From Acidobacteriota bacterium (GTDB lineage Bacteria; Acidobacteriota; Terriglobia; Terriglobales; Acidobacteriaceae): a stretch of 16,359 nt of DNA. Position numbers and translations under genes: made by a program. The stretch is taken from positions 1 to 16,359 of the forward strand of contig JAJZMO010000003.1 of the NCBI GenBank assembly GCA_021798235.1, in the 5' to 3' direction. This document shows, piece by piece, positions 1,388-16,359 of the stretch. The notes under the pieces are model-generated. The model was not told the DNA's origin and searched no databases. It saw only the letters and a list, made by a program, of their open reading frames with translations. Within the stretch, counting starts at the first letter, position 1, and the number at the start of each line of letters is the position of its first letter.

Positions 1388-1423
1388 GTGCCCCACGTCT
1401 CGCTTTTGAGACGTGGGCTATGC
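1388..1423 (+). repeat. REP-like palindrome, copy 2
   Basis: This is an exact 36-bp duplicate of 14-49: GTGC foot, 10-bp stem 1392-1401/1408-1417, loop GCTTTT. It sits directly between the DUF2971 stop and the RAYT start, so the DUF2971 gene is bracketed by direct repeats. Just upstream, GGGGTGCC is tandemly doubled (from 1377). Confidence 0.9.
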
Positions 1424-1430
1424 TGTTCGC

Positions 1431-1958
1431 ATGACCACCGGCCTTGTCCGTTACCAAGAAACCGGAGACCTGCACTTCATCACATTCAGTTGTTTTCAAA
1501 GACGACCCTACTTGGTCTCGAATGAAAGCAAAGATTTGGTTGTCGATGCGCTGGAGCGGATGCGCCTTCGGTACGGATTTTCTGTATACGGTTACGTCGT
1601 GATGCCGGAGCATGTTCATCTGTTGGTAAGTGAGCCGGAGAATGGGATTCTTGCACGGGCCATCCAGGCCATCAAGTTGTCGGTAAGTGTTCGCCGCCAA
1701 AAACGGCCTTTTTGGCAGGCAAGGTATTACGACTTCAATGTGTTTTCTGAGAAGAAGCGCGTGGAGAAGTTGCGCTACATCCATCGCAACCCTGTGACAC
1801 GCGGCTTGGTGAAGCGGCCAGAAGACTGGGCTTGGTCCAGCTTTCGACACTACGCCAGTGGAGTACGAACAACGGTTGAGATCGAATCTTCTTGGACGGC
1901 AGCACGTCGGGAGCGCGCGAGTTCCCACGTCTCAGAATCGAGACGTGGGGCACCCTGA
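1431..1958 (+). CDS. REP-associated tyrosine transposase (RAYT, Y1 transposase)
   Basis: This 175-residue HUH-type Y1 single-strand DNA transposase is the class that binds and cleaves REP hairpins. It shows the typical HFITFSC strand (15-21), the HUH-like metal motif PEHVHLL (H61, H63) and the conserved RYIHRNPV (115-122), whose Tyr116 is the likely nucleophile. The hallmark EDWAWSS (131-137) follows. The start is placed at ATG 1431. An upstream in-frame GTG at 1413 lies inside the REP stem and is unlikely to be used. The last codons and the stop run through the inverted REP copy at 1924-1953, so the C-terminal residues are encoded by the palindrome. Length matches the family (about 150-180 residues), and the gene looks intact. 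Confidence 0.9.
   Translation: MTTGLVRYQETGDLHFITFSCFQRRPYLVSNESKDLVVDALERMRLRYGFSVYGYVVMPEHVHLLVSEPENGILARAIQAIKLSVSVRRQKRPFWQARYYDFNVFSEKKRVEKLRYIHRNPVTRGLVKRPEDWAWSSFRHYASGVRTTVEIESSWTAARRERASSHVSESRRGAP
1924..1953 (-). repeat. REP-like palindrome, inverted copy 3
   Basis: The same 10-bp stem arms (1924-1933 and 1940-1949) carry a different loop, AGAATC, followed by GCAC, the complement of the GTGC foot. It is therefore in opposite orientation to copies 1 and 2, giving the RAYT gene a convergent REP pair (BIME-like layout). It overlaps the 3' end of the transposase gene. Confidence 0.85.
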
Positions 1959-3572: not shown

Positions 3573-3596
3573 GGTAGTTTTGGCCCCATGGGCTGG

Positions 3597-3683: not shown

Positions 3684-4589
3684 ATGACCACAGGCGCGCA
3701 GTTTGGAGAGGGACCGGTGCTGGCGGGCGTGGATTTTTCTCCCGCTTCGGATGCAGTGGTGGAGTACGCGGCGCGACTGGCGCGGGTTGAGGGTCGCCCG
3801 CTGCATGTGATCTACGTCCTGCCCGTGGTGCCGGAGGATTCTGCCCCGCTGTTGGATGTGCAGGAGGCTGAGCTGCAACAGCGCGTGGCTGAGGCCCAGC
3901 GTGTGATGGGCAAGACCGGGGTGGTGAAGGGCACAATCGCTGCGGGCAATGCGGCGCACACCCTGTTGGCGCAGGCGGATGCACTGCATGCAGCCTGCAT
4001 CGTGGTGGGAACGGCGGCGCTGCAAAGCGTGGACCGGTTCCTGCTGGGGTCGGTGGCAGAGACCGTGGTGCGCACATCGAATCATCCTGTGCTGGTGGTG
4101 GGGCCACAGGCGGTGAAGACCCAGCTGGGTGATTTGCCGTGGCGGCACGTGCTGCTGGCCTGTGACACGCAGCATGGAGTGACGGCGGCGGCGCGTCTGG
4201 CCGGGGAACTGGCCGTGCGCAACCATGCGCGGCTGACCATCTTTCACGTCAAGCGGGATGGCCTGCAAAATCTGAGTGAAGAAGAATTTGCTGCGATGGA
4301 GCCGATGCTGACGCCGGAGGCGTGGCTGGCCGTGCAGCCGCAGTGTTTGATCCGCGCTGGCGAGCCAGCGCAGGAGATTGTGCGCATGGCGGTCGACAGC
4401 GCAGCCGATCTGCTGGTGATGAGCGTGCGCAGTGGCAGTGAGATGTTGACACATCTGCGTGGGGGAATTTTGGCGCGGGTTTTGCGCTCGGTGCGTTGCC
4501 CGGTGCTGGTGTTGCGGGAGGCTGCTGGCAAAGGCCGCGCGCATGTCCCAGCGCAGGGAAACAAAGACGCAGTGCGCCACATCGCCTGA
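3684..4589 (+). CDS. Universal stress protein, tandem UspA domains
   Basis: This 301-residue cytoplasmic protein is built of two UspA folds (about 11-140 and 154-277). Each ends in the usual valine-rich strand (NHPVLVVG; RCPVLVLR). In the first domain the nucleotide loop reads GTAALQSVDRFLLGS (109-123). The spacing of the G-2X-G-9X-G(S/T) motif is kept, but the second Gly is Ala, so ATP binding is uncertain. The second domain lacks a clear motif. Usp proteins act in survival under starvation, anoxia or oxidative stress, often as nucleotide-dependent signalling partners. The start at 3684 has AGAGGTG at 3673-3679, five bases before the ATG. A perfect CRP/FNR-type palindrome upstream and the regulator gene directly downstream suggest redox-responsive expression. 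Confidence 0.9.
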   Translation: MTTGAQFGEGPVLAGVDFSPASDAVVEYAARLARVEGRPLHVIYVLPVVPEDSAPLLDVQEAELQQRVAEAQRVMGKTGVVKGTIAAGNAAHTLLAQADALHAACIVVGTAALQSVDRFLLGSVAETVVRTSNHPVLVVGPQAVKTQLGDLPWRHVLLACDTQHGVTAAARLAGELAVRNHARLTIFHVKRDGLQNLSEEEFAAMEPMLTPEAWLAVQPQCLIRAGEPAQEIVRMAVDSAADLLVMSVRSGSEMLTHLRGGILARVLRSVRCPVLVLREAAGKGRAHVPAQGNKDAVRHIA

Positions 4590-4708: not shown

Positions 4709-5416
4709 ATGGCCGAACCAAACTTCAACATTAAACAGCCGGAAAGTTGCCTGACCTGCACCAGCCGGCACGAGGACTGGTTCTGCAACCTGTCGCCGCA
4801 GGCGCTGGCGGAGTTTGAGGCCCTGGGCATGCACATGATGGTGCCGCCGGGCGGGACGCTGTTCTTCGAAGGGCAGTCGGCGCACAGCGTGTATGTGCTT
4901 TGCCATGGCCATGCGAAGCTGATGACCTCATCGCGCGAAGGCAAGACGCTGTTGGTGCGCATTACCAAGCCGGGCGACGTGCTGGGCCTGAGCGCGGCCA
5001 TCTCGGGCACGCCGTATGAGATCACGGCGCAGGCTCTGGATCCCGTGCAGGTGAAGTCATTTCAGCGGCAGGATTTTTTGCGGTTTCTGGAGCGGCACAT
5101 TGAAGGCAGCATGCACGCCACCAAAATGATGAACCGCGAATACCGCAACGCATTGAGCGATGCGACCCGGCTGGCGCTGTCGAGTTCGATTCCGGGGCGC
5201 GTGGCGCGGCTGTTTCTGGAGATGGCCAACGGGCAGGAAGCCAACGGCCAGCGCTTCACTATGTCTCTGACGCATGAAGACCTGGCGACCATGCTGGGCA
5301 CCACGCGCGAATCCGTCACGCGCGCGTTGAATGAGATGAAGCGCAAAGGGATGATCGCCATCAAGGGTACATCGATCACGCTGCTGCGCAAGGATGCGCT
5401 GGAAGTTTTGGTCTAG
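4709..5416 (+). CDS. CRP/FNR family transcriptional regulator with N-terminal Cys cluster
   Basis: The product is 235 residues: an N-terminal cysteine patch, a cyclic-nucleotide-binding-like beta-roll (about 35-120), a dimerisation helix (about 125-160) and a C-terminal winged helix. The recognition helix is TTRESVTRALNEM (198-210). R200, E201 and R205 match the R-E-x3-R of E. coli CRP (R180, E181, R185), which reads GTGA. FNR uses E-x2-S-R for TTGAT. C14, C17 and C26 (C-x2-C-x8-C) resemble the FNR [4Fe-4S] ligands. The fourth FNR cysteine has no counterpart at the expected place, and the only other cysteine is C65 in the beta-roll. The CRP cAMP residues are not recognisable. It is therefore probably a redox, O2 or NO sensor, which is inferred. 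GGAG at 4697-4700 supports ATG 4709. A matching palindrome lies in its own upstream region. Confidence 0.9.
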   Translation: MAEPNFNIKQPESCLTCTSRHEDWFCNLSPQALAEFEALGMHMMVPPGGTLFFEGQSAHSVYVLCHGHAKLMTSSREGKTLLVRITKPGDVLGLSAAISGTPYEITAQALDPVQVKSFQRQDFLRFLERHIEGSMHATKMMNREYRNALSDATRLALSSSIPGRVARLFLEMANGQEANGQRFTMSLTHEDLATMLGTTRESVTRALNEMKRKGMIAIKGTSITLLRKDALEVLV

Positions 5417-5731: not shown

Positions 5732-6661
5732 ATGTCCACGCGGCAAATTCAATTGTGGGCCAGTCCGCGTCGCATTCTTCTGGCGACGGGGTTGGTGGAT
5801 CTGAAGTTCACGCTGCCTGTGGCAATTCGTCAGGCGCTTACGTACAAGGCCGAGTTGAAGATTGTGCATGTGCTGCCGGATGCGGCGGCCCCGGTGGTGG
5901 ATCCGGTGCTGATGATGTACTCCGACCCGGACCGGATGCGGCGCACGGCCGAAGAAGAGTTGAAGAGCGCGGCGGAGCAGGCAGAGACGGCGGGTGTGTC
6001 CTGCGGCTACCAACTGGTCAGTGGCAATGTGGTCAATGAGCTGATCGAGATTGCCGCGCAGTGGAAGGCGGAGCGAATCGTGGCCGGCTCACATGGAAAA
6101 TCCAAACATCACATGCACATGCTTGGCTCAGCGGCAGAGTCCATCTTTCATCGCAGCGAGGTGCCCGTGTTGGCGGTGGGGCCGAAGGTGGTGCAGCGCA
6201 CGCTGGGGCCGAATGACCGGATGCGCATTGTGTTTGCCACCAAGCTGGACCAAGGCGCGCGGCGCATTGCCGAGTTTGCCCTGAGCGTGGCTGAGAACCA
6301 CCAGGCCGACGTATGGATGGTGCACGTGGTGACCAATGTGGTGCAGGAGCATCCGACGGCGGGGCCAGTGCGCGCCTACGCCAGCCGCATGATGCAAGAC
6401 CTGATCCGCGAGAACAATGTGCGCAAGTGCAACCCGGTGTGTGATGTGGTCTACGGCCCGGCGGTGGAATCGATTCTGGCCTACGCTGCGCGGCAGAGCG
6501 CGGACATGATCGTGATGGGTGCTTCCGCGCACTCGGCATTTGATGCGCGGTTTATTCCCGGCACGGCCTATCGCGTGCTGTGCGACTCTGCGCGCCCGGT
6601 GCTGGTGCTGAAGCAGGAGTCGGTTTGGGTACAGAAAGGCCTAACGGCGGAAGCCATTTGA
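5732..6661 (+). CDS. Universal stress protein, tandem UspA domains
   Basis: This 309-residue protein has two UspA domains (about 12-150 and 160-295). The first carries an intact nucleotide-binding motif, GSHGKSKHHMHMLGS (119-133): G-2X-G-9X-G-S with G119, G122 and G132. The second domain has only a degenerate version near MGASAHSAF. Binding of ATP by the first domain is therefore plausible, unlike usp 1, where the motif is broken. The start at 5732 follows AGAGGAG (5721-5727). The gene is followed after 48 nt by a small membrane protein gene and then a terminator, so the two are probably co-transcribed from the promoter carrying the 5648 operator. Confidence 0.9.
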   Translation: MSTRQIQLWASPRRILLATGLVDLKFTLPVAIRQALTYKAELKIVHVLPDAAAPVVDPVLMMYSDPDRMRRTAEEELKSAAEQAETAGVSCGYQLVSGNVVNELIEIAAQWKAERIVAGSHGKSKHHMHMLGSAAESIFHRSEVPVLAVGPKVVQRTLGPNDRMRIVFATKLDQGARRIAEFALSVAENHQADVWMVHVVTNVVQEHPTAGPVRAYASRMMQDLIRENNVRKCNPVCDVVYGPAVESILAYAARQSADMIVMGASAHSAFDARFIPGTAYRVLCDSARPVLVLKQESVWVQKGLTAEAI

Positions 6662-6709: not shown

Positions 6710-7330
6710 ATGCAGAGTCTGAAGAAAAACTGGGGCGCAACCGCGCTGCAGAGTGGCATAGCTCTACTGGTGCTGGGGATGGTTTTACTGGTGCTGGGAG
6801 CGAATATGTCCGCGCATGGAACCAATCCGTGGATCCTGGCCGTGGCCAGTGTGCTGCTATGCGTGGGCATGGCGTGGCCGCTGCTGCAGCTGAGCAGGGG
6901 GAGATGGCCGATCGCACCCTGGAGCGTATTGGGTTTGCTGCTGGCTGCGGGAGTATTCTTTCTGGCCTACAAAGCGGCTCCGGTTACAACGTGGATCACT
7001 ATGCCTACGGGCGGGTTGGGCGTTGCCAATCCCGTCGTGCTCTGGATCACGATGCCTGCAGGGGGCATGGGGATTCTGTGGAGTCTGTGGTTGCTGCGGC
7101 TGGCGATGCCGGAGCAACGGCAAAGGGGAAAAGCGCGCCTTCTGGCCATAGCTGCTGGAGTGACGGCGACCTTGGGCGTTGTGCTGGCGATGCAAACCGA
7201 TTTAAGCCGCATTACTGCATTGACCGCAGCGGCATGCTTTGCGTTCTGGATTGGCGCTCAGGTGTTGATGAGCATCCCGCTGCTTTATCGCGAACTGTGT
7301 ACGGAAATGGCACAAACGGTACAGAGATAG
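6710..7330 (+). CDS. Polytopic membrane protein of unknown function
   Basis: The product is 206 residues, with about five or six hydrophobic segments (roughly 12-31, 40-60, 70-88, 107-130, 143-160 and 168-190) and no recognised domain. A striking internal duplication, WITMPTGGLG (95-104) and WITMPAGGMG (112-121), puts two Met-Pro-Gly-Gly turns next to each other in a predicted loop or membrane edge. A cleavable signal peptide is not evident. ATG 6710 is preceded by AGGGGAAGG (6695-6703). It lies 48 nt after usp 2, and a strong terminator follows. Co-transcription with a stress protein suggests a role in envelope stress or redox response, but no function can be assigned. Confidence 0.75.
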   Translation: MQSLKKNWGATALQSGIALLVLGMVLLVLGANMSAHGTNPWILAVASVLLCVGMAWPLLQLSRGRWPIAPWSVLGLLLAAGVFFLAYKAAPVTTWITMPTGGLGVANPVVLWITMPAGGMGILWSLWLLRLAMPEQRQRGKARLLAIAAGVTATLGVVLAMQTDLSRITALTAAACFAFWIGAQVLMSIPLLYRELCTEMAQTVQR

Positions 7331-7349
7331 TTGCTGCCGTCGGACGCAA

Positions 7350-7380
7350 ATATCCCCGCCACAAAGCGGGGATATTTTTT
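7350..7380 (+). terminator. Rho-independent terminator after usp 2 / membrane protein operon
   Basis: A 10-bp perfect stem ATATCCCCGC / GCGGGGATAT (7350-7359 with 7366-7375) has loop CACAAA and is followed by a run of T to 7380. It starts 20 nt after the stop codon at 7330 and separates this unit from the cytochrome operon. Confidence 0.92.
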
Positions 7381-7445
7381 GTACTACCGCGTCTGCGGCT
7401 CGGATGTGCTCGCAAACACTGCAAAAAAAAGGATTCCACGCACAT

Positions 7446-7459
7446 GTGACGCGCGTCAC
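7446..7459. promoter_or_regulatory. CRP/FNR-type operator 1 upstream of the cytochrome operon
   Basis: GTGAC-GCGC-GTCAC is a perfect palindrome, extended on the left by T to TGTGAC. It is the distal member of a tandem pair and lies about 125 bp upstream of the ATG at 7583. Confidence 0.7.
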
Positions 7460-7467
7460 CCTGCGGC

Positions 7468-7481
7468 GTGATGCGAGTCAT
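7468..7481. promoter_or_regulatory. CRP/FNR-type operator 2 upstream of the cytochrome operon
   Basis: GTGAT-GCGA-GTCAT is a near-perfect palindrome. Its centre is 22 bp from that of the 7446 site, about two helical turns, so two dimers could bind on the same DNA face. Confidence 0.55.
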
Positions 7482-7582
7482 GGTTGCTGGGTGATGCAGA
7501 AAGTAGTCTGCAGAGTGCTCGATCACAATGCGCGCACGATTGCACGTGGCGTTGCAGAACGGCACAGAAGGAAGAAAACGGA

Positions 7583-9052
7583 ATGAACCGGGAGATGAAA
7601 ATAGCCTTTGGGTTCACACTACTTGTGACGGCGGCTTTGCTGGCAGTGCAGGCCACGGCGCCCAAAGCAGAGGCGATCCCAGCTTTCGCCAGAAAATATC
7701 ACACAGCGTGCCAAACCTGCCACAGCAATTGGCCGGAGTTGAATGATTTTGGTCTGGCTTTCAAGATGAACGGCTTCAAGTTTCCACAAGACAACGAAGA
7801 TTTTGTGAAGGAACCGCCGCTGGAGCTTGGCTCGCGCGCGCAAAAAGAGGCCTTCCCCAATTCGATCTGGCCGGGCGAGCTGCCGATTTTGCCGATCGCC
7901 TTCCGCTACTCCGGCTATACGACCTATACCAGCCCGCAGCCACAGGCCATCGCCGCCGAGAGTGGATTTATCCCGCAGGCGGAAATGTTCAGCCCGAACA
8001 CGTTTACGATCATCTCTGCCAGCAGTCTGGGGCCGTCGTTGGAGTTTTGGATTGACGATGACATCTCGACAGGCGGAACGGGCCAGGGCGGCGGATTGGG
8101 CGATGCCTATATCAAGGCAAATAACTTCGTCGGCTATTACCTGCATGTGCCGCGCAATGATCTGAATGTGCGCTACGGGCAGTTCGAGCTGGACCTGCCG
8201 TTTACGCAGGCGCGCACGATCAACCTGACCAACTATGCAATCTATAGCGAGACGGCGAATGTGAATCCGTCGGGCAATGGGCCGCTGCCGGGAACGACCA
8301 ACAACCCATTCACCTTTGCCAGTCCGCAGACGGGCATTGAGTTGGGGGGCTATCCCTACCGCGGCAACACGTGGTGGTCGGTGTCCCTGGTGGATGGAGA
8401 AAATTCGCAGTATGGCACCGTGCCTGTAGCCTCGCAGAATGCCAAGGATGTGTACATCAATTTTTGGCAACGCTTCAATCTGGAGCGCGACCCGGCGATT
8501 CGCAAGCAGGTCCAGGCCTCGGGAGCGACAGGTATTCATGACCACACGCAGATTCGCTTCAATGGGTTTGCCTTTATCGGCGACAACCAGACAAATCAGG
8601 ATGGAAAGCTCTATCCAGGGCTGCCGGTGTTGAGCGAGCCGTTCTATCGTGCGGGCGGAGCGTTTCTCTACAAATTCCGCAGTGACTTTTCGCTGTGGGG
8701 TTTGTATGAGCATGCGCACGACGCCAACAAGACCATCAACGCAGCGAACACGGCGTTTGTGACGGCGACGCCGGTGACCTACTCTGGAGGATTTCTGGAG
8801 GCGGAGTACTGGTTCTATCCGTGGCTGATTGGCTTGATGCGCTATGACGGTGTGAACTCGCCGACCGATCGCATCAATGGGGTTTCGCGCTATGACACGC
8901 GCAACCAGTTTGAACCCGGCGTGCAGATTCTGGTGCGCCCCAATATCAAAATCGAGACGCAATACACGTACAGCTACCAGCAGCCGGTGCCGAACTCCAC
9001 GCAGTATTACCGGCAGAACCAGATGATGGCTGGCATCGACTTTGTGTACTAA
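7583..9052 (+). CDS. Monoheme cytochrome c fused to a long putative beta-barrel (Cyc2-like)
   Basis: The product is 489 residues. A signal peptide (about 1-31, ending AEA) is followed by a single heme site CQTCH (C43, C46, H47) inside IPAFARKYH...NWPELNDFGLAFKMNGF. That block resembles the N-terminus of Cyc2-type porin-cytochromes and their relatives ('FAR-x-CxxCH-x-P-x-L-x-FG-x-x-x-NG'). The remaining roughly 410 residues have no further heme. They show alternating, aromatic-rich segments and end in GIDFVY, like outer-membrane barrel C-termini. In Cyc2 such a fusion carries electrons across the outer membrane, for example from Fe(II). That role is inference here. The start at 7583 has AAGGAAG at 7568-7574; a second Met at residue 5 is possible. 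It is first in a four-gene operon of periplasmic electron carriers. Confidence 0.75.
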   Translation: MNREMKIAFGFTLLVTAALLAVQATAPKAEAIPAFARKYHTACQTCHSNWPELNDFGLAFKMNGFKFPQDNEDFVKEPPLELGSRAQKEAFPNSIWPGELPILPIAFRYSGYTTYTSPQPQAIAAESGFIPQAEMFSPNTFTIISASSLGPSLEFWIDDDISTGGTGQGGGLGDAYIKANNFVGYYLHVPRNDLNVRYGQFELDLPFTQARTINLTNYAIYSETANVNPSGNGPLPGTTNNPFTFASPQTGIELGGYPYRGNTWWSVSLVDGENSQYGTVPVASQNAKDVYINFWQRFNLERDPAIRKQVQASGATGIHDHTQIRFNGFAFIGDNQTNQDGKLYPGLPVLSEPFYRAGGAFLYKFRSDFSLWGLYEHAHDANKTINAANTAFVTATPVTYSGGFLEAEYWFYPWLIGLMRYDGVNSPTDRINGVSRYDTRNQFEPGVQILVRPNIKIETQYTYSYQQPVPNSTQYYRQNQMMAGIDFVY

Positions 9053-9110
9053 CGGCGCAAGCAGCAAGGGCCACTGTGGCCACAATCAACCCGAAAGGAA
9101 TGGAGATTTT

Positions 9111-9719
9111 ATGAAGACGAAACAATACATCGCAGGATGGACCATGGCAGCGGCGGCCTTGTTGTTGGCAGGCGTGGCGCACGCGGGCGACATCAAAGGC
9201 AAGGTGACGGCGCAGGGGCTGCGCTCGCCGGAGAATATCGCAGTTTACATTGATGCAATTCCCGGCAAAAACTTTACTCCCCCGGCGCAACACGCGGCCA
9301 TGGATCAGGCGCATCTGGCGTTTGCTCCGCACGTGTTGGTGGTGTTGAAGGGCACAACGGTGGACTTTACGAATGAAGACCCGGTGGGCCACAACGTGTA
9401 CTGGCCGGCGATCAACAAAAACCGCAAGCTGGCGCACAACATGGGAACATGGCCGCAAGGGCAGAAGAAGTCTTTCACCTTTGATGTTCTGGGCACGGTG
9501 CCGTTGCTCTGCAATGTGCACCCGGAGATGTCGGGCTACATCATCGTTGCACCCACGCCGTACTTTGCCGTGACGGACAAGCAGGGCAACTTCGTCATCA
9601 AGAATGTTCCTGCAGGTGCGTACACGCTGACGGCATGGAGCGAAGAGGCCAAGTCCTCCACGCAGCCGGTGAAGGTGGGCGCAGGCGTGACGGCGGTCAG
9701 TGTAACGGTGAAACGGTAA
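9111..9719 (+). CDS. Cupredoxin (type-1 copper) protein with carboxypeptidase-regulatory-like domain
   Basis: This 202-residue exported protein has a signal peptide ending near AHA (about residue 25). The central cupredoxin-like region has the type-1 copper ligands H94 (VGHNVYW), C134, H137 and M140 (LLCNVHPEM). The spacing C-x2-H-x2-M is tight, as in many plastocyanin-like periplasmic proteins. The last 50 residues (YFAVTDKQGNF...VPAGAYTLTAW) form a carboxypeptidase regulatory-like beta domain, often seen in surface or secreted proteins. It should shuttle single electrons in the periplasm, here probably between the Cyc2-like protein and the multiheme cytochrome encoded next. The start at 9111 is chosen for the signal peptide and for GGAG at 9102-9105. 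It lies 58 nt after the previous stop. Confidence 0.82.
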   Translation: MKTKQYIAGWTMAAAALLLAGVAHAGDIKGKVTAQGLRSPENIAVYIDAIPGKNFTPPAQHAAMDQAHLAFAPHVLVVLKGTTVDFTNEDPVGHNVYWPAINKNRKLAHNMGTWPQGQKKSFTFDVLGTVPLLCNVHPEMSGYIIVAPTPYFAVTDKQGNFVIKNVPAGAYTLTAWSEEAKSSTQPVKVGAGVTAVSVTVKR

Positions 9720-9746
9720 CGAAATTCGGATCGGCATGGAGCAGCG

Positions 9747-11672
9747 ATGTTGAAACAATCCATACAAAAAGCAGTGCCATGGCTGCCCCATGCCTTTGCC
9801 GTAGCGATTGCGGCAGCGCTGGTGGCGATTTACTGGCAGGGGTCTGGCAGCAGGGATGCGTGGCGGCACACGCACGCCGAGATGGTGCGCCACGCACATG
9901 CCGGTGCATTGGCGTGGCGGCAGCCGGTGTTGCCGCAGCAATATGAGCAGGCCAGTTGCGGAGCCTGTCACCATGAAGACCTGCCGCAGACGCCGCGTCT
10001 GAACCACGGGCGCGCGCTGCTGGTGCGCTACAACTGCATCGGCTGCCACACGCTGCAAGGCGTGGAGCGCCCGGCCATGCTGGCACCAGACCTGAGCAGC
10101 GTTGGCACCAAGGTGAGCCGGGAGTGGATCTACAAGTGGCTCAAAGAACCGCGTACGATTCTGGATGCGGATGGTAACGTCGTCGTCGATGGCGTGGCCA
10201 CGCAGCCGAGGATGCCGCAGTTTCGCTTGAGCGACGAAGAGTTGCGCGCGCTCTCTGCATTCTTGAGCGTGCAGAAGGCGCAGCCGGTTGCGGCCTATCA
10301 CTTTAGCGCCAGTGCGATGGCTGCAGCGCGCAAGAACGGCGACCCTGCGGATGCAGGCGAGGTGCGCTTCAATCAAATGTTTTGCGTCACCTGCCATTCG
10401 CTGTCCGTAGATCGCGGTGGCGTGACGCAGTTGATCGGCGGCGACATTGGGCCGGAGCTGACCAAGGTGGGCAGCAAGGTGAATCCGCAATGGCTGGTAG
10501 CGTGGCTGCGTGATCCGCAGGGATATTTGCAGCACACGAAGATGCCGCGCTATCAGTGGTCGGATCAGGATTTGTATGAGGTGTCGCAATATGTGGAAAC
10601 GCGGCTGACGGATCCGGATCTGTTGAGCGATGTGCCCAAGCTGGGCGCGCCGACGCCTGAGGAAGTGCAAGAGGGACGCCAGCTCTTCCAGGACAAGGGC
10701 TGCATTCAATGCCACGCAATGCAGGGCATGGAGCGCCGCCAGAATTTTGCACCGAACCTGGCCGGGTTGGGCATGGCACCGGGGCCATACCTGTTTCAAG
10801 TGCAGTCGCACTTTGGGCAGGCGATCCCGATGCACTTCCCCGCAAAGCGCGATGCGGTGCTCGACATCAGCGTGGGAAAAATTCCGCGCTTCCTCATCAC
10901 CTACATCCAAGCCAAGATCACCAACCCGGTATCGGTGACGCCAGAAACGCACATGCCGCAGTTTGCGATGAACCAAAGCGATCTGGATGATTTGACCACG
11001 GCCGTGTTGAGCATGACCGGCGGCGCATCCACAGCGGAGGAGCAGTATCCCATGCTGCCCAAACCGCATCCGGTGTTTCAGCCGAGCGGCGCTGCTGGTG
11101 AACTGTATCAGCGCTATCGCTGCTACGTTTGCCACACCTTCAACGGGTATGGCGGCACACTGGCTCCAAACCTGTCGTATGAGGGCAGCCGCTCTCAGCA
11201 TGACTGGATCGCCGCATTTTTGCAGAAGCCTCAAACCTTGCGGCCTACGCTGACCGCGCGCATGCCAGAGTTCAACATGCCGCAGCAGGACGCACAGGTG
11301 CTGGCAGATTTTTTGACCAGCACGATGCGCAACCCTGCCGTGGATCCAAATGCGGTGAGCGCGTCGAGCTTTACGCCAGAGATGGCCGCGCGTGGCAAGC
11401 ATTTGTATGAAGGAAAATTTCAATGCCAGTCCTGCCACACCATTGGCTCCAGCGGCGGTTACGTTGGCCCCAGCCTAAACAACGCGGGCAACTGGCTGAC
11501 GCCAGCGTGGATGGAGGCCTGGCTGCACAATCCGCAAGCGTTGCTGCCGGGTACGATTGAGCCGCGGCAGAAATTTACAGAGCAGGAAATTCAAGACATC
11601 ACTGCTTATTTATTGACGTTGAAGCAGGCACCGGAACAGGCCGAAGCCGCCGGAGCGGGAGGACAGCCATGA
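9747..11672 (+). CDS. Membrane-anchored hexaheme c-type cytochrome
   Basis: The product is 641 residues. An N-terminal hydrophobic anchor (about 12-30) is followed by six CxxCH heme sites at C71 (CGACH), C97 (CIGCH), C213 (CVTCH), C319 (CIQCH), C459 (CYVCH) and C560 (CQSCH). The last five each head a class I cytochrome c domain. Four of the five have a downstream MPxF/MPxY that could supply the axial Met (M156, M266, M403, M506). The last has no obvious Met and may be differently ligated. The first CGACH lies just upstream of domain 1 with no domain of its own. The protein is probably a periplasmic electron wire tethered to the inner membrane. GGAG at 9738-9741 supports the start. The gap from the cupredoxin gene is 27 nt, and the stop overlaps the next start. 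Confidence 0.9.
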   Translation: MLKQSIQKAVPWLPHAFAVAIAAALVAIYWQGSGSRDAWRHTHAEMVRHAHAGALAWRQPVLPQQYEQASCGACHHEDLPQTPRLNHGRALLVRYNCIGCHTLQGVERPAMLAPDLSSVGTKVSREWIYKWLKEPRTILDADGNVVVDGVATQPRMPQFRLSDEELRALSAFLSVQKAQPVAAYHFSASAMAAARKNGDPADAGEVRFNQMFCVTCHSLSVDRGGVTQLIGGDIGPELTKVGSKVNPQWLVAWLRDPQGYLQHTKMPRYQWSDQDLYEVSQYVETRLTDPDLLSDVPKLGAPTPEEVQEGRQLFQDKGCIQCHAMQGMERRQNFAPNLAGLGMAPGPYLFQVQSHFGQAIPMHFPAKRDAVLDISVGKIPRFLITYIQAKITNPVSVTPETHMPQFAMNQSDLDDLTTAVLSMTGGASTAEEQYPMLPKPHPVFQPSGAAGELYQRYRCYVCHTFNGYGGTLAPNLSYEGSRSQHDWIAAFLQKPQTLRPTLTARMPEFNMPQQDAQVLADFLTSTMRNPAVDPNAVSASSFTPEMAARGKHLYEGKFQCQSCHTIGSSGGYVGPSLNNAGNWLTPAWMEAWLHNPQALLPGTIEPRQKFTEQEIQDITAYLLTLKQAPEQAEAAGAGGQP

Positions 11673-12313
11673 AGACGATCGCACTGTATTTGGCGATGAT
11701 CGCCGCGTGTTTGGGGCTGTATGCCTTCGCTGCGAAAAGCCTGGCGGCAACTCCGCTGTGGTGCTGGCCGTATGGAGGACAGGGATTGGTGGTGCGGCAA
11801 GTGCCGCATCCGAAGGGCGTAGAGTACGTTTCCTATGGCTCCTACGGATCGGATGTGGACGCGAACAATCCTGACCACACGATTCCGTTGAACTATGCGC
11901 AGGCCGATGGCAAGCGCGTGTATATGGAACAGTGCATCTGGTGCCATGCTGACTCGACGCCAGCGGGGCCGTCGAATCGCAGCAACGTGACGCCCACGCC
12001 GCCGTTGATGAGCGATGGCACGGTCTTCAATCCGATGAGCGATGCGGTGCTGGAGCGGGCGATTGCGCTGGGCGGCATGGCCACGGGCAAGTCAGCGATG
12101 ATGCCGCCGTATGGCCAATCGTTGACGCCGCAGGAGATTACGGACGTGGTTGCCTACATGCGCGTGATCGCAACGCCAGCGTATGTGAAGCCAACACTAT
12201 GGAGCCGCATCGCGCACAAAAAACAGAAGAGCGCGCCACCGGCGGCCACCAGTAGCGATGGAAGCGGCGGAAGCACGAGCAACGACAGCAGCAGCTCTCC
12301 AACGGGAAATTAA
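11669..12313 (+). CDS. Monoheme c-type cytochrome, exported
   Basis: The product is 214 residues. A signal peptide or anchor (about 1-27, ending LAA) is followed by one heme site, CIWCH (C89, C92, H93). A candidate axial methionine lies in SAMMPPYG (M144/M145), giving a class I cytochrome c domain of about 75-170. Residues 190-214 are a low-complexity Ser/Gly/Asp tail. The ATG overlaps the stop of the hexaheme gene (ATGA at 11669-11672), so translation is likely coupled and the two proteins probably work together. It is the last gene of the operon. It could hand electrons to or accept them from an inner-membrane complex not encoded in this window. Confidence 0.88.
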   Translation: MKTIALYLAMIAACLGLYAFAAKSLAATPLWCWPYGGQGLVVRQVPHPKGVEYVSYGSYGSDVDANNPDHTIPLNYAQADGKRVYMEQCIWCHADSTPAGPSNRSNVTPTPPLMSDGTVFNPMSDAVLERAIALGGMATGKSAMMPPYGQSLTPQEITDVVAYMRVIATPAYVKPTLWSRIAHKKQKSAPPAATSSDGSGGSTSNDSSSSPTGN

Positions 12314-12382
12314 AGCAACCCTGAGCAAGTCTGCTAATCGTTCCCTCAGCGGCTGAAGCTGCACTTTGATGCTGGAACTTAC

Positions 12383-12402
12383 GGCGGGACTCAAGTCCCG
12401 CC
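12383..12402. repeat. GC-rich palindrome, possible REP or terminator
   Basis: A 9-bp perfect stem, GGCGGGACT / AGTCCCGCC, is separated by CA. It lies 70 bp after the monoheme cytochrome stop. The downstream bases are TTCAAAAA, not a T-tract, so it is a poor intrinsic terminator on the plus strand. A dispersed palindromic repeat is the better reading. Confidence 0.55.
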
Positions 12403-12478
12403 TTCAAAAACACAGGCTTGTTCCGGGATTCCTTAAAGCATTTTTGGGGTATTCAGGATCGAGAAATCACCGGTGTCT

Positions 12479-12517
12479 CCCACTCTAGCCGCAGAGAGCG
12501 CGGCTAGAATGGGGCAC
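12479..12517 (-). repeat. REP-like palindrome with GTGC foot
   Basis: The arms at 12479-12492 and 12500-12513 pair over 14 bp with one mismatch (core CTAGCCGC / GCGGCTAG). On the minus strand it begins GTGCCCCA, the same foot as the REPs around the RAYT gene, but the rest of the stem sequence differs. This suggests a related REP subfamily. Confidence 0.65.
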
Positions 12518-12561
12518 CGAAAACTTTTGTGAAGGCAGAAGCTGAAAGCGCTTGCAATAAA

Positions 12562-12584
12562 CGCGCAGCCAGAGCGGCTGCGCG
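12562..12584 (-). terminator. Possible terminator of the minus-strand flavoprotein gene
   Basis: A 9-bp perfect stem CGCGCAGCC / GGCTGCGCG (12562-12570 with 12576-12584) has a 5-nt loop. Read on the minus strand it is followed by TTTATT, a short U-rich run. It lies about 40 nt beyond the stop at 12626. Confidence 0.5.
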
Positions 12585-12623
12585 AGTTCCCAAACATCCA
12601 TTCAAAAATGCTAGCAGTGTAAG

Positions 12624-12667
12624 AATCACTCCACAGTGGTCAGAGTCTTGGCTTCTGTGGAGTGATT
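12624..12667. repeat. 13-bp inverted repeat spanning the flavoprotein stop codon
   Basis: AATCACTCCACAG (12624-12636) pairs perfectly with 12655-12667 across an 18-nt spacer. It includes the last codons and the stop of the minus-strand gene. It may be a 3'-end stabilising hairpin or part of the terminator region; this is inferred only. Confidence 0.5.
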
Positions 12668-14119
12668 TGCATTTTCGTTCGTGGGGATCTCCGGAGCAAC
12701 GCCAGAGAGCAGTTTTTCTATGACATCGGCGGCGCGATAGCTGGAGCGGCCCGGCGGCAGAAACTGCGCGACGCTCACTAGGTCGTCGCCCGCGGTGACC
12801 AGGCCCACCTCAACGCGATGGCCATTGCGCGCCTGGGGATGGCCGATGTTGGCCAGCAGCGCGTTGCAGATACATTTGCGACCTGCGGCGTCTTCGGCCT
12901 TGCCGCCCTTGGACACGTAGACACTGATTGGTTCCGCAGCGCAACGATAGCCAATGGACCCGTCCGATGTGCGGTAGGCCTCGCGTAAAAAGCCGAGATC
13001 GCAGATGCGTGGACGCGTGGCGCAGATCTCTGCATCGGAACCCGTGCCTTCGAGTTGCGCAACCTTAAACGGAAATCCAGTGGGCGAGGCCAGCGGGTCA
13101 GTAAAGACGTGAGCTTCACCGCGCATGGCTTTGGTGAGCAACGCTTCTTTGTAGTCTGCACGCAGATCGGATTCCTCTGCAAAGGCAAAGGCTGTACCGA
13201 CTTGTATGCCGGTTGCGCCGAGCGCGAGTGCCTCGCGCAATTTCTCCGCATGGCCATAGCCTCCGGCCAGCCAAAAGGGCACGCCGAGTTCGCAGAGCTT
13301 GGCAATATCGACGGTGTCGCGCTCGCCGTATACAGGTTCCCCGGACGTGGAGAGTTGCAGCTTGCCACGCGGCGGTGCATTGTGTCCGCCTGCCGTGCGT
13401 GTTTCGATGATGAGGCCATCGACGCGGCCATGCGCTTTTTTCAGCATGGTGATGGCCAGCGTGTTGGAGGAGACGATGGCCAGAAATTTTGGGCGCGTGA
13501 GCGTGGGCAGATCGCACTCCATCCACGTGCGCGGATCAAAGTGCATCGTGGTGTCATCGCCTTCTTGCGCTCCGGTGACGGTGAGTGGATAGTCGGCGGG
13601 CTGGTGCATGGCGAAGCTATCAAGCACGGCGGGGATGCGCAGCGGGATGCCCGCGCCCATCAAAACATAACCCACGTTGGCGAGCATCGCGCCGTAGATT
13701 GCAGGCAGATGCGCCATCTGAATTTTTTCCAGATAGTTGATGCCGACGGGGTGCGCGTGGCCTTCGCGGGCGAGAAAAACTTCAACGAAGTTGCCCAGGA
13801 TGCACAGCTCCGTCAGCTCGCGCGGGTTTTCCTTGGCGTGCATGGGCGCGACACGATAGGCAGTCTGCTCCGGTTTACCGCCGGGGATGAAGTACTGGCT
13901 CCAAACACGCGCGGCCATCGCCGGAAAGGGAAAGGCGTCGAAGGCGCGGCGCATGTGTCCGTCGGGATCGCCATCTTGCAGGCGACGCGCCAGGATCTGA
14001 TCGAGTGCAGTGCCGGAGACCACGCCCAACTGGCCGAGACGCGAAACGGATTGCGCGAGACGCCAACTGGAGACGCCAGCGCCCATGCCACCTTGAATGA
14101 TGCGAGGAAGTTGAGTCAT
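12626..14119 (-). CDS. Nitronate monooxygenase-like FMN oxidoreductase (NPD family)
   Basis: The product is 497 residues with a TIM-barrel flavoprotein core. The N-terminal PRIIQGGMGAGVSSW (5-19) is the typical NPD start. AGGH (243-246) and the phosphate-binding GGYG (286-289) with GATGIQVGTAF (301-311) complete the FMN site. Family members oxidise alkyl nitronates or act as related flavin oxidoreductases. At about 500 residues it is clearly longer than the usual 320-350. The extra C-terminal part contains five cysteines, including CATRPRIC and KCIC, so the true substrate may differ. ATG 14119 is preferred over an upstream in-frame start (14239) because AGGA lies just before it and homology begins there. 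It is transcribed divergently from hemG. A palindrome CCGCAC-GT-GTGCGG (14139-14152) lies in its leader. Confidence 0.82.
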   Translation of the reverse strand: MTQLPRIIQGGMGAGVSSWRLAQSVSRLGQLGVVSGTALDQILARRLQDGDPDGHMRRAFDAFPFPAMAARVWSQYFIPGGKPEQTAYRVAPMHAKENPRELTELCILGNFVEVFLAREGHAHPVGINYLEKIQMAHLPAIYGAMLANVGYVLMGAGIPLRIPAVLDSFAMHQPADYPLTVTGAQEGDDTTMHFDPRTWMECDLPTLTRPKFLAIVSSNTLAITMLKKAHGRVDGLIIETRTAGGHNAPPRGKLQLSTSGEPVYGERDTVDIAKLCELGVPFWLAGGYGHAEKLREALALGATGIQVGTAFAFAEESDLRADYKEALLTKAMRGEAHVFTDPLASPTGFPFKVAQLEGTGSDAEICATRPRICDLGFLREAYRTSDGSIGYRCAAEPISVYVSKGGKAEDAAGRKCICNALLANIGHPQARNGHRVEVGLVTAGDDLVSVAQFLPPGRSSYRAADVIEKLLSGVAPEIPTNENANHSTEAKTLTTVE

Positions 14120-14138
14120 ATCGATCCTAATTGTTGCA

Positions 14139-14152
14139 CCGCACGTGTGCGG
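14139..14152. promoter_or_regulatory. Palindrome in the leader of the flavoprotein gene
   Basis: CCGCAC-GT-GTGCGG is a perfect 6+6-bp inverted repeat about 20 bp upstream of the minus-strand start codon at 14119. It could be an operator or an mRNA hairpin. No regulator is identifiable. Confidence 0.35.
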
Positions 14153-14217
14153 CGTTCGTCGCAGTTTTGTAATGTTTGCAGGATGAATCTCATCTGTACT
14201 TAGCTTCAGGCACAGCG

Positions 14218-14243
14218 CACAGAAATTCTGTGACCGCAATCAC
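14218..14243. promoter_or_regulatory. Overlapping palindromes: candidate composite operator between divergent genes
   Basis: CACAGAA-A-TTCTGTG (14218-14232) is a perfect 15-bp dyad. It overlaps GTGAC-CGCA-ATCAC (14230-14243), a near-perfect member of the GTGAY-N4-RTCAY family. The pair lies 66 bp before the hemG ATG and about 100 bp before the flavoprotein ATG. Two different regulators could compete here. Confidence 0.5.
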
Positions 14244-14309
14244 TGCGCAGGGTGGAGGCGGAACTTAGTCTGAGGCTGTTGCGATGGAATGCGCACTGGG
14301 GAGCAAGTG

Positions 14310-15746
14310 ATGCAGAAGACTGTGGTGATTGTCGGCGCAGGCATTGCAGGATTGGCGGCAGCCTGGACGCTGCAAAAAAAATCGCACGGAGCCGTTCGCT
14401 GTCTGGTGATGGAACGAGGGTTACATCCCGGTGGAAAAATTGTTTCCGAGTACCACGATGATTTTCTGGTGGAGCGAGGGCCGGATTCTTTCATCGTGCA
14501 AAAGCCGGATGCGCTGGAGTTGTGTCGCGAGCTGGGATTGGAAGAGCGGCTGCTCGGATCCAACATGGAGCAGCGCACGACGTATGTTTGGAGCCGGGGA
14601 AGATTGCATCCGCTGCCGGAGGGAATGATGCTGGTGGCTCCGGCGAAGGTGCTGCCAGTGCTGCGCTCGCGGCTGCTGTCGTGGCCGGGCAAGCTGCGCA
14701 TGGGCATGGAGTACTTTATCCCCGCGCGCAAACCGGATGCGCCGGAAGAGAGCCTGGCCGCGTTCGTTCGCAGACGTCTGGGGCAGGAAGCTCTGGAGAA
14801 AATCGCCACGCCGCTAATGGCTGGCATACACGCTGCGGACCCGGAGCGGTTGAGTTTGCAAAGTACATTTCCTGTGTTTTTGGAGATGGAGCGGAAACAT
14901 GGCGGCCTGTTGCGCGCCATGCGCAGCCGCAGACAGGCGCAGAAAAAGAATGCAGCTCAGGGCGGACTCCATCGTGTGGCAGGGCCCATGTTTTACAGTC
15001 TGCGCGGCGGCTTGCAGCAGATGACAGATGCGTTGGCGGCCCGGCTGGAGCCGGGAACGTTGCGGTTGGGCGAGAGCGTGGAAACGATTACGCGCCAGGA
15101 TGAGCGGTACCTGCTGACGATGGGTAATGGACAGAAGCTGCACGCGGATGCAGTAATTTTGGCCGCGCCGGCCTATGCCGCAGCGCAGATGATTGAGGCG
15201 CTGGACGCACCGCTGGCAGAAAAGCTGCGCGCGATTCGATATGTTTCCACGGCGACAGTTTCGCTGGCGTATCGGCGCAGCGAGATTCCGCACGCGCTGG
15301 ATGGATACGGCTTTGTAATTCCGCGTACGGAACATCGAAGCATAACGGCCTGCTCGTGGTCTTCAGTAAAGTTTCGTGATCGTGCGCCGGAGGATCGCGT
15401 GCTGCTGCGGGTTTTTCTGGGTGGAGCGGGCGCGGAGCACTTGGCGGAGCAGGGCGAGGCGGAGTTGATCGATCGCGCGCGCGTGGAGCTGCGCACCACG
15501 ATGGGGATTGTGGCGCATCCGTTGCTGGCCACGGCGCATTGTTGGTGGAAGGCCAATCCGCAATATGAGCTGGGCCACGCGGCGCTGGTGGAAGAGATTG
15601 AGCGCCGGGCGGCGCAACACGATGGCCTGTATCTGGTCGGTGCGGCTTACCACGGCGCAGGCATTCCCGATTGCATCCGCAGCGGCAAAGATGCAGCTGC
15701 CGTGGCAGCAGAAAAAATCCAAATCGACAGGTGTGTGTCCTTATGA
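14310..15746 (+). CDS. hemG: Protoporphyrinogen/coproporphyrinogen oxidase (HemY/HemG type)
   Basis: This 478-residue FAD enzyme oxidises protoporphyrinogen IX (or coproporphyrinogen III) to the porphyrin late in haem synthesis, using O2. The N-terminus holds the FAD dinucleotide-binding motif VVIVGAGIAGLAAAW (5-19), with the acidic/arginine ER-GLHPGGK region after the second strand. ERGPDSF and the conserved PLMAGIHAADPERLS stretch are typical of the family. The C-terminal LYLVGAAYHGAGIPDCIRSG closes the FAD site. ATG 14310 is preferred over an in-frame ATG at 14289 because GGGGAG (14298-14303) sits at proper distance. A CRP/FNR-type palindrome is upstream. The stop overlaps the start of the radical SAM gene, indicating coupling. 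The gene name follows the PPOX naming hemG (also called hemY or cgoX). Demand for haem by the c-type cytochromes upstream fits the context. Confidence 0.92.
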   Translation: MQKTVVIVGAGIAGLAAAWTLQKKSHGAVRCLVMERGLHPGGKIVSEYHDDFLVERGPDSFIVQKPDALELCRELGLEERLLGSNMEQRTTYVWSRGRLHPLPEGMMLVAPAKVLPVLRSRLLSWPGKLRMGMEYFIPARKPDAPEESLAAFVRRRLGQEALEKIATPLMAGIHAADPERLSLQSTFPVFLEMERKHGGLLRAMRSRRQAQKKNAAQGGLHRVAGPMFYSLRGGLQQMTDALAARLEPGTLRLGESVETITRQDERYLLTMGNGQKLHADAVILAAPAYAAAQMIEALDAPLAEKLRAIRYVSTATVSLAYRRSEIPHALDGYGFVIPRTEHRSITACSWSSVKFRDRAPEDRVLLRVFLGGAGAEHLAEQGEAELIDRARVELRTTMGIVAHPLLATAHCWWKANPQYELGHAALVEEIERRAAQHDGLYLVGAAYHGAGIPDCIRSGKDAAAVAAEKIQIDRCVSL

Positions 15747-16359
15747 TGGAAAACGCGAAGCGGTTGTTTGTCTCGAATCCAGGAGCTGTTGGGGTTGCAC
15801 CCTCTGTGCAGGCGAGCCTGGCGCGCACAGGCGGCAGAGTGGATTATTCGAAGAATCCCATGCTGGTGTATTGGGAGATGACGCAGGCTTGTGCGCTGGC
15901 ATGCCGCCACTGCCGCGCTGAGGCTATCGCCACGCCACATCCCAATGAGATGACGCATGAAGAGAGCCGTTCGCTGCTGCGCCAGATTCTCGCCTTTGGG
16001 CGTCCGTTGCCGCATTTGATTTTGACCGGCGGCGACCCGATGCAGCGGCCCGATGTGTTTGCGCTGATCGACGAGGCGCGCGCGCTGGGGCTTTCCGTTT
16101 CCATCACGCCGAGCGCGACGCCGAACCTGACCCGCACGGCAATCGAGAGGTTACAGCAGCACGGAATTGAGAGCCTGGGGCTGAGCCTGGATGGGTCCGA
16201 TGCCGCGCGGCATGAGTTGGTGCGCGGCGTGGCGGGTTGTTATGACTGGACGATGCGCGCCTTGCGCGATGCCGGGGAGCTGGGCCTGCCCGTGCAGGTG
16301 AACACCTTGGTTTCTGCCGAGACGGTGGACGACTTGCCCGCGATTTACGCCTTGTTGCA
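15743..16359 (+). CDS. Radical SAM protein, TIGR04053/BA_1875-like (partial at window end)
   Basis: The first 205 residues are visible and the gene runs off the right edge. The radical SAM cluster motif CALACRHC gives C-x3-C-x2-C (C50, C54, C57), followed by the SAM-binding LTGGDP (GGD region) and LSLDGSD. The run WEMTQAC...CRAEA with TGGDPMQRPD and TPSATPNLT matches the family I know as BA_1875-type radical SAM/SPASM proteins. The SPASM part would lie beyond the window. ATG 15743 forms ATGA with the hemG stop, so translation is coupled; a second ATG at 15746 is in frame. Coupling to PPOX suggests a role in porphyrin or haem modification, in the manner of Ahb/NirJ radical SAM enzymes, but this is inference. 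Confidence 0.85.
   Translation, partial: MMENAKRLFVSNPGAVGVAPSVQASLARTGGRVDYSKNPMLVYWEMTQACALACRHCRAEAIATPHPNEMTHEESRSLLRQILAFGRPLPHLILTGGDPMQRPDVFALIDEARALGLSVSITPSATPNLTRTAIERLQQHGIESLGLSLDGSDAARHELVRGVAGCYDWTMRALRDAGELGLPVQVNTLVSAETVDDLPAIYALL

What the first reader, a model, noticed from the sequence alone, without database searches (positions are those of the whole stretch)
7583..12313. Candidate transenvelope electron conduit: Cyc2-like porin-cytochrome, cupredoxin, hexaheme and monoheme cytochromes
Four tightly spaced exported redox genes (gaps 58, 27 and -4 nt) give the parts for moving electrons between the outside and the inner membrane. They are a fused heme-barrel, a soluble copper carrier, a membrane-tethered multiheme wire and a small cytochrome. 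The logic recalls the Acidithiobacillus rus operon (cyc2, cyc1, rusticyanin), but the gene set is different and no oxidase is adjacent. In an acidobacterium this could be an undescribed Fe(II) oxidation or extracellular electron transfer system under redox control.
Basis: partly seen in the sequence, partly recalled or inferred. Interest (0 to 1): 0.85.

Follow-up and report, generated by a model that had tools for sequence, protein, structure and literature searches.

The report
Cyc2-like electron conduit in acidobacteria
An acidobacterium carries a set of genes that looks able to pass electrons between the cell's inner membrane and the outside world, and relatives suggest that it is a cut-down form of a larger respiratory gene cluster, which gives a testable candidate for how these acid-loving bacteria use iron.

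Summary
In detail: four genes at 7583-12313, gaps 58, 27 and -4 nt. The first protein meets the published Cyc2 sequence marks (AIPAFARKY, CQTCH, PEL) and a 16-strand barrel is predicted. The second is a type 1 copper protein with an amicyanin-like loop, with no rusticyanin match. The third has six haems, the fourth one. In loci found through the first gene the block is intact in 15 of 15 that can show it; one further contig has the other three genes without it. New result: of 18 regions read from more distant Terriglobales, 15 have the Cyc2-like and copper genes followed by an NAD(P)/FAD/Fe-S protein, Rieske, cytochrome b (two genes) and an octahaem homologue of the hexahaem protein; three have a two-haem cytochrome instead. 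The window block thus looks like a reduced form of a Cyc2-Rieske/cytochrome b operon, lacking the bc genes and the first two haems. Conserved CRP-type sites link it to two Usp genes beside a CRP/FNR-type gene, whose copy neighbours cydA in three of five relatives. Best reading: a transenvelope conduit used at low oxygen, probably outward to Fe(III) or another oxidant; Fe(II) oxidation is a strong rival. Direction and substrate are not shown.

The parts
7583..9052 (+). Cyc2-like porin-cytochrome, 489 aa, one haem c; outer-membrane place inferred
   Evidence: 16-strand barrel predicted, porin matches; motif criteria read
7673..7741 (+). Haem segment AIPAFARKY-HTA-CQTCH-SNW-PEL (residues 31-53)
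   Evidence: Published Cyc2 motif AXPXFAR[Q/K][T/Y] + CXXCH + PXL; most columns invariant in the 54-row alignment
9111..9719 (+). Exported type 1 copper protein with C-terminal carboxypeptidase-regulatory-like domain, 202 aa
   Evidence: PF00127 and PF13620; best PDB match amicyanin, E 2.6e-4
9390..9392 (+). Likely copper ligand His (GHNVYW)
   Evidence: Read; pattern HN...CxxHxxM in 45 of 45 related ORFs
9510..9530 (+). Likely copper ligands in CNVHPEM (Cys, His, Met)
   Evidence: Read
9747..11672 (+). Multihaem c protein, 6 CxxCH, predicted N-terminal membrane anchor, 641 aa; homologue of the octahaem protein of a Rieske/cytochrome b operon
11669..12313 (+). Monohaem cytochrome c with N-terminal anchor or signal, 214 aa
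   Evidence: 40% identity over 104 aa to the monohaem protein of the bc-containing operon
7445..7460 (+). CRP-type site TGTGACGCGCGTCACC, 138 bp before the cyc2-like start
   Evidence: a site of at least 9 of 10 letters within 340 bp upstream in 9 of 16 core loci, resamples mean 0.24
7348..7377 (+). Terminator-like stem after the gene 6710-7330, 12 pairs
   Evidence: the scan finds fewer such sites than shuffles do: 3 against 5.5
4709..5416 (+). CRP/FNR-family regulator with Cys 14, 17, 26, 65 and recognition helix TTRESVTRAL
   Evidence: PF13545, PF00027; aligned with CRP/FNR structures; copies at 71-76% identity in 9 of 16 core genomes
3684..4589 (+). Universal stress protein 1, with CRP-type sites at 3596 (9 of 10) and 3618 (8 of 10)
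   Evidence: named by similarity to the Usp gene at 5732, no family search run on it
5732..6661 (+). Universal stress protein 2, with CRP-type sites at 5647 and 5669
   Evidence: PF00582; sites at nearly the same distances in relatives
6710..7330 (+). Hydrophobic protein of unknown family, upstream of the block in many core loci
14229..14244 (+). CRP-type site between divergent genes, the one at 12626-14239 (-; its TTG start overlaps the site and may be wrong) and 14289-15746 (+, protoporphyrinogen oxidase)

Best explanation
The block encodes a path for electrons across the periplasm. The Cyc2-like barrel with its haem sits in the outer membrane, the copper protein is the soluble shuttle, and the membrane-anchored hexahaem protein and the monohaem protein are the inner-membrane end. 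It is a reduced form of a larger operon in which a Rieske/cytochrome b complex with an octahaem protein, and an NAD(P)/FAD/Fe-S protein, stand between the copper gene and the multihaem gene. It is controlled by a CRP/FNR-type factor linked to low-oxygen genes. Most likely it carries electrons outward to an external oxidant, at low pH probably Fe(III). Shown by computation: the genes, their conservation, motifs, predicted barrel, copper-ligand pattern, homology to the bc-linked octahaem protein, conserved CRP-type sites. Inferred: membrane positions, order of carriers, that the bc block was lost rather than gained, that this regulator binds these sites, direction, substrate.
For: Published Cyc2 sequence marks met; barrel predicted. 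Block order kept. 15 of 18 second-clade regions read carry cyc2L-copper-NAD(P)/FAD/FeS-Rieske-cytb N-cytb C-octahaem (families checked on L055 only). Ten of these operons were extended and 10 of 10 go on with a monohaem c and a 430-aa protein; related copies of both follow the hexahaem gene in 11 of 13 core loci that reach so far, so both ends of the operon match. The N-terminal two-haem pattern is in 18 of 18 bc-linked proteins and in 0 of 16 core ORFs (core fragments included; two distant ORFs, L058 second ORF and L101, left out and lacking it). Low-oxygen link: CRP-type sites; the regulator copy lies next to a cytochrome bd gene in 3 of 5 regions fetched (L110-L112; not L113, L114). Acidicapsa and Acidobacterium capsulatum reduce Fe(III) under oxygen limitation (passages of PMC8790237), and that review gives bc1-CycA1-rusticyanin-Cyc2 as one proposed outward chain in Acidithiobacillus. 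RuBisCO in 3 of 32 carriers.
Against: No experiment. Absence of the bc genes from the core operon weakens a direct quinol-to-outside route there and would also fit a Fe(II)-to-oxidase chain. Three second-clade loci have cyc2L and copper genes with a two-haem cytochrome and no bc block (L062, L129, L130), so bc coupling is not universal. L126 has the copper, hexahaem and monohaem genes without a cyc2-like gene; its hexahaem ORF is in two pieces. The octahaem or hexahaem gene occurs without a full-length cyc2-like match in 52 of 118 genomes, so the bc complex has other uses. Most second-clade proteins depart from the strict Cyc2 motif (4 of 16 meet it, 10 have Ser for Ala, 2 miss it). Five of 16 core upstream regions (425 bp) have no site even at 8 of 10 letters, and the close regulator copy was found in 9 of 16 core genomes (some are MAGs, perhaps incomplete). 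The haem domain is poorly modelled. No characterised Cyc2 sequence was compared directly.
Confidence: 0.48

Rival explanations
1. Inward conduit: extracellular Fe(II) is oxidised by the Cyc2-like protein, and electrons pass through the copper protein, hexahaem and monohaem proteins to a terminal oxidase encoded elsewhere, giving a heterotroph extra energy. The bc-containing operon of relatives would also allow reverse flow to NAD(P)H.
For: Characterised Cyc2 proteins oxidise Fe(II) (passages of PMC8406198 and PMC7029218). Several core contigs carry isolate codes that I recall as acid mine drainage sites. COX1-family genes, which include NO reductases, in 13 of 13 core genomes searched. Lack of bc genes in the core block suits a chain that needs only an oxidase.
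Against: No oxidase in the window. 3 of 32 carriers have RuBisCO. The copper protein scores as amicyanin/plastocyanin-like; such proteins have potentials well below Fe2+/Fe3+ at acid pH (recalled, not measured here). Linked regulator and Usp genes suggest low oxygen.
Confidence: 0.33
2. The set serves another extracellular redox partner (humics, quinones, manganese, or a partner cell), with iron incidental.
For: Proteins with at least a partial match to the Cyc2-like protein are common in the order (211 of 397 genomes); Keffer et al. call the function of cluster 3 homologues most uncertain.
Against: Nothing in the block points to a particular non-iron substrate.
Confidence: 0.13
3. The Cyc2-like protein is a porin for an unrelated solute and the cytochromes only form an ordinary periplasmic branch to oxidases; no electrons cross the outer membrane.
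For: Fold matches are solute porins; the haem domain is not confidently modelled; L126 has the other three genes without it.
Against: Haem motif invariant in the alignments; adjacency to redox genes in two clades.
Confidence: 0.06

Closest known systems
Cyc2 (fused cytochrome-porin; Acidithiobacillus, Mariprofundus)
   Same: Single haem c with AXPXFAR[Q/K][T/Y] and PXL motifs, over 365 aa, 16-strand barrel predicted
   Different: No direct comparison with a characterised Cyc2 and no FeGenie cluster assignment made here; three residues separate motif and haem site, where the paper says 5 amino acids upstream (counting may differ); partners differ
[quoted passage not shown]
   Same: Cyc2-type gene first, with copper protein and c-type cytochrome genes
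   Different: No oxidase genes, no rusticyanin match, a hexahaem and a monohaem protein in place of Cyc1
Acidithiobacillus pet-encoded bc1 complexes (passages of PMC8790237)
   Same: A bc-type complex proposed to work with the same kind of outer-membrane chain
   Different: In Terriglobales the bc genes are in one operon with the Cyc2-like gene, the c-type protein is octahaem and an NAD(P)/FAD/Fe-S protein is included; the window block lacks the bc genes
MtrAB/MtoAB porin-cytochrome conduits (recalled)
   Same: Barrel plus haems for electron transfer across the outer membrane
   Different: Fused single-haem barrel here; no decahaem ORF in the window (one lies beside the block in L010)

Membership tests
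Cyc2 | AXPXFAR[Q/K][T/Y] motif before the haem site | tested here: met
   AIPAFARKY at residues 31-39 (criterion read); in 15 of 15 core ORFs that hold the N-terminus, window included. Strictly met in 4 of 16 second-clade ORFs
Cyc2 | CXXCH, PXL just after it, length at least 365 aa | tested here: met
   CQTCH, PEL, 489 aa
Cyc2 | Fused beta-barrel porin of about 16 strands | tested here: met
   Prediction only: 16 strands of 7 or more residues, pLDDT 72; porin matches
Cyc2 | Match to a FeGenie Cyc2 HMM and cluster | not testable with these tools
   HMMs not held; no NCBIfam or Pfam match
Cyc2 | Fe(II) oxidase activity | not testable with these tools
   Needs protein work
rus operon | coxBACD oxidase genes in the operon | tested here: not met
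   No oxidase among the window ORFs that I identified
rus operon | Rusticyanin | tested here: not met
   Copper protein matches amicyanin, plastocyanin, halocyanin and an S-layer model, all below cut-off, and no rusticyanin model at E up to 0.1 (that NCBIfam holds one is recalled)
Amicyanin (TIGR02657) | Score above curated cut-off of 110.2 bits | tested here: not met
   23.7 bits; the copper-loop spacing CxxHxxM is alike
Rieske/cytochrome b complex operon | Rieske and cytochrome b genes beside the multihaem gene | tested here: not met
   Absent from the window block; present in 15 of 18 second-clade regions read
MtrAB-type conduit | Decahaem cytochrome with a separate barrel | tested here: not met
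   No decahaem ORF in the window

The most novel reading that the evidence does not exclude
Terriglobales have an undescribed iron respiratory system in which one operon links an outer-membrane Cyc2-type porin-cytochrome, through a copper protein, to its own octahaem Rieske/cytochrome b complex and an NAD(P)/FAD/Fe-S protein, giving an NAD(P)H-to-outside (or reverse) chain. The window clade stripped out the bc block and the two haems that dock to it, leaving a portable conduit that plugs into other respiratory complexes under low-oxygen control.
Probability: 0.38. Interest if true: 0.8.

Novelty: new variant of a known kind. Interest (0 to 1): 0.62.

Why it matters
How acidophilic acidobacteria exchange electrons with iron is open: the review passages seen (PMC8790237) record Fe(III) reduction by Acidicapsa and Acidobacterium and say that little is known of the exact mechanisms in extreme acidophiles. 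This gives named genes, a conserved operon, a likely ancestral partner complex and a likely regulatory site, all testable in culture. It also shows Cyc2-type genes tied to bc-complex genes, which bears on using cyc2 alone as a marker of Fe(II) oxidation.

Tried and rejected
Rusticyanin and rus-operon membership: rejected. RuBisCO as a sign of iron lithoautotrophy: 3 of 32 carriers, two of them core genomes with weaker scores. A named Cyc2 relative in the plasmid collection: three records with short N-terminal matches, E 6e-4 to 2e-3. A PDB relative of the first protein by profile: one match at E 0.22, taken as chance. A first AlphaFold model on core sequences alone was weaker (pLDDT 62) and was replaced. 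A sigma-70 scan over 7250-12700 found none. My first copper-ligand pattern was too strict (16 of 45) and was loosened to allow other residues beside His (45 of 45). Literature: eight searches, open-licence papers only, of which I saw listings and starts of abstracts; none of the listed papers appears to describe this operon. Passages only were seen of PMC10654088 (also outline), PMC8406198, PMC7029218, PMC8790237, PMC5462947 and PMC13264449; the last reports cluster 3 Cyc2 genes in 25 MAGs with role uncertain, and the passages seen do not say which phyla. PMC12442345 gave no hit for the terms tried.

Mended on recheck: the claim that no relative contradicts the block (L126 does), 15 of 16 bc regions (now 15 of 18, with L129 and L130 read because one search showed no multihaem match in their genomes), 119 and 53 genomes (now 118 and 52, G005 taken out because one search does not list it), six upstream regions without a site (five). 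The odds of the best and the novel reading were lowered by 0.02 each for the first two; two rivals gained 0.01 each.

Full report
What is there. The first protein has a hydrophobic start, then AIPAFARKY-HTA-CQTCH-SNW-PEL. Keffer et al. 2021 (PMC8406198; passages seen) name AXPXFAR[Q/K][T/Y], CXXCH, PXL and a length of at least 365 aa as marks of Cyc2 and ask for a porin to be confirmed. AlphaFold2 on 100 aligned sequences gives 16 strands of 7 or more residues and two very short ones; 46 of the 50 Foldseek matches shown are named porins or outer-membrane channels and 4 are titled artificial metalloproteins, with modest TM-scores. The copper protein has a His and a CxxHxxM loop as in amicyanin, a pattern kept in 45 of 45 related ORFs. 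The third protein has six CxxCH after a hydrophobic segment, the fourth has one.

Conservation. A scan of genome contigs (one genome for each of 84,980 species) with peptide words found 17 loci, all with acidobacterial titles. Ten have all four genes, five all that contig ends allow, two end in the first gene. Six of the 17 have a second copy of the copper gene. These loci have the first gene by construction. Starting from the hexahaem protein instead, 135 of 398 genomes of the family have a match at E 1e-40; I count 19 with core-type identity of 55% or more. Three of these had no full-length cyc2-like match (G341, G324, G388). Two are cut by contig ends (L125, L127). The third, L126, has copper, hexahaem (in two pieces) and monohaem genes with the hydrophobic-protein gene directly upstream and no cyc2-like gene.

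Two clades. In 397 genomes of the order, 211 have some match to the first protein at E 1e-3. By my count of the rows, 75 have E at or below 1e-60: 15 'core' genomes (66-78% identity, two of them fragments) and 60 'second clade' genomes (42-48%).

The larger operon. In 15 of 15 second-clade loci returned the copper gene is beside the cyc2-like gene. I fetched wider regions from 16 of the 60, chosen for room on both sides, and later two more, chosen because one search showed no multihaem match in those genomes. In 15 of the 18 the order is cyc2L, copper, a protein of about 650-670 aa with Fer4_20, pyridine nucleotide and 4Fe-4S domains, Rieske, cytochrome b N, cytochrome b C, octahaem protein (domains tested on L055 only; some octahaem ORFs are cut by the fetched ends, and in L069 the 650-aa gene shows two pieces). 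In L129 and L130 the copper gene is followed by a two-haem cytochrome and a 430-aa protein, without bc genes; in L062 an ORF with two CxxCH lies before the cyc2-like gene and no bc genes follow. Ten of the bc operons were extended: 10 of 10 go on with a monohaem c and the 430-aa protein, which has no Pfam family. In the core clade the hexahaem gene is followed by a related monohaem c and a related 430-aa protein in 11 of 13 loci that reach so far; the window and L012, its near copy, lack the last gene. So core and bc-type operons match at both ends and differ by the bc block.

Which form is older. The bc-linked multihaem proteins begin with a two-haem part right after the anchor: 18 of 18 (15 second-clade, L099, and L100 and L102 from a third type of bc operon). 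It is absent in 16 of 16 core ORFs, fragments included. In a quick tree rooted on L100 and L102 the core is one group (SH-aLRT 99) and the bc-linked proteins another (92); the program warns that long branches meet, so the root is unsure. The simplest reading is that the core lost the bc genes and the two haems together, which suggests that those haems face the Rieske/cytochrome b part. That is inference; the bc-less second-clade loci show that partner sets change more than once.

Other bc loci. I read four further cytochrome b loci of core genomes, and each has a Cyc2-like ORF nearby (L099 to L102); of these only L101 meets the strict motif. All 18 genomes searched, 16 of them core, have some cytochrome b match, so bc complexes elsewhere could feed the conduit.

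Limits of the link. Of 118 genomes positive for the hexa/octahaem protein and also in the sample, 66 have a full-length cyc2-like match and 52 do not. The multihaem gene is thus wider than the conduit. Nine of the 75 cyc2-like carriers are not among the positives; two of them (G237, G193) are listed as negative and were read as above, the others may not have been in the sample.

Regulation. TGTGA-N6-TCACA with up to one mismatch occurs five times in the window against 0.57 expected, 0 of 200 shuffles reaching five. Three sites lie 88, 85 and 63 bp before the two Usp genes, one 138 bp before the cyc2-like gene, one between the divergent genes at 14.2 kb. Distances repeat closely in the relatives listed. 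Upstream of the cyc2-like gene 9 of 16 core loci have a site of 9 or 10 letters within 340 bp, against a mean of 0.24 and a maximum of 2 in 1000 Markov resamples; two more have 8 letters and five have none. Of six second-clade starts checked, three have a perfect site, one 8 of 10 and two none. The CRP/FNR-family gene at 4709 has an R-E-x-V recognition helix aligned to CRP/FNR structures and four cysteines. Its copy stands beside a cytochrome bd gene in G004, G013 and G002 (L110-L112), with a likely NO reductase and an iron-sulphur repair gene in L110 (recognised by eye), but not in L113 or L114 (CydA tested in L112). Binding was not tested.

Direction. The facts allow both. For outward flow: low-oxygen linkage, few RuBisCO genes, a copper protein unlike rusticyanin, a quinol-oxidising type of complex in the relatives, and known Fe(III) reduction in acidobacteria. 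For inward flow: Cyc2 precedent, and lack of the bc block in the core clade. I put outward first at about one half.

Known or new. The parts are of known kinds. I found no description of this operon in the searches named under tried and rejected. I file it as a new variant of the Cyc2-type conduit, a member by sequence marks and predicted fold, with function open.

Noticed in passing
L010 8644-9627; L009 10445-11365: A decahaem cytochrome ORF (327 aa) lies just before the cyc2-like gene in L010; a 58% identical one is near the block in L009.
   Followed up: partly
L129 3313-4254, L130 3059-4084, L062 5467-6747: Second-clade loci with a two-haem cytochrome in place of the bc block: another partner set for the Cyc2-like and copper pair.
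   Followed up: partly
L126 739-4129: Core-type copper, hexahaem and monohaem genes without a cyc2-like gene; the hexahaem ORF is in two pieces.
   Followed up: partly
L095 5422-8402, L096, L097 7295-9575: A third kind of cassette: Cyc2-motif ORF (AIPAFARKY), a two-haem cytochrome (seen in L095, L097), and a distant copper protein in the same region.
   Followed up: partly
L115 990-2279; L011 15073-16353: A conserved exported-looking protein of about 430 aa without any Pfam family follows the operon in both clades; absent in the window.
   Followed up: partly
window 6710-7330: Hydrophobic protein of no known family, weakly conserved (28-47%, 72% in L017) upstream of the block in many core loci; followed by a strong terminator-like stem.
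   Followed up: partly
window 1413-1958: ORF that looks by eye like a REP-associated transposase (MPEHVHLL); not searched.
   Followed up: no
window 361-1371: DUF2971 protein (PF11185, E 3.6e-8), function unknown.
   Followed up: no
window 15671-16357: Start of a TIGR04053-like radical SAM gene in an ORF overlapping the end of the protoporphyrinogen oxidase gene; cut by the window.
   Followed up: no
L013 15016-16509 and 18320-19174: ORFs with 11 and 8 CxxCH downstream of the block in AB60.
   Followed up: no
L110, L111, L112: Regulator copy beside a cytochrome bd gene, with a likely quinol NO reductase nearby, which suggests an oxygen or NO signal.
   Followed up: partly
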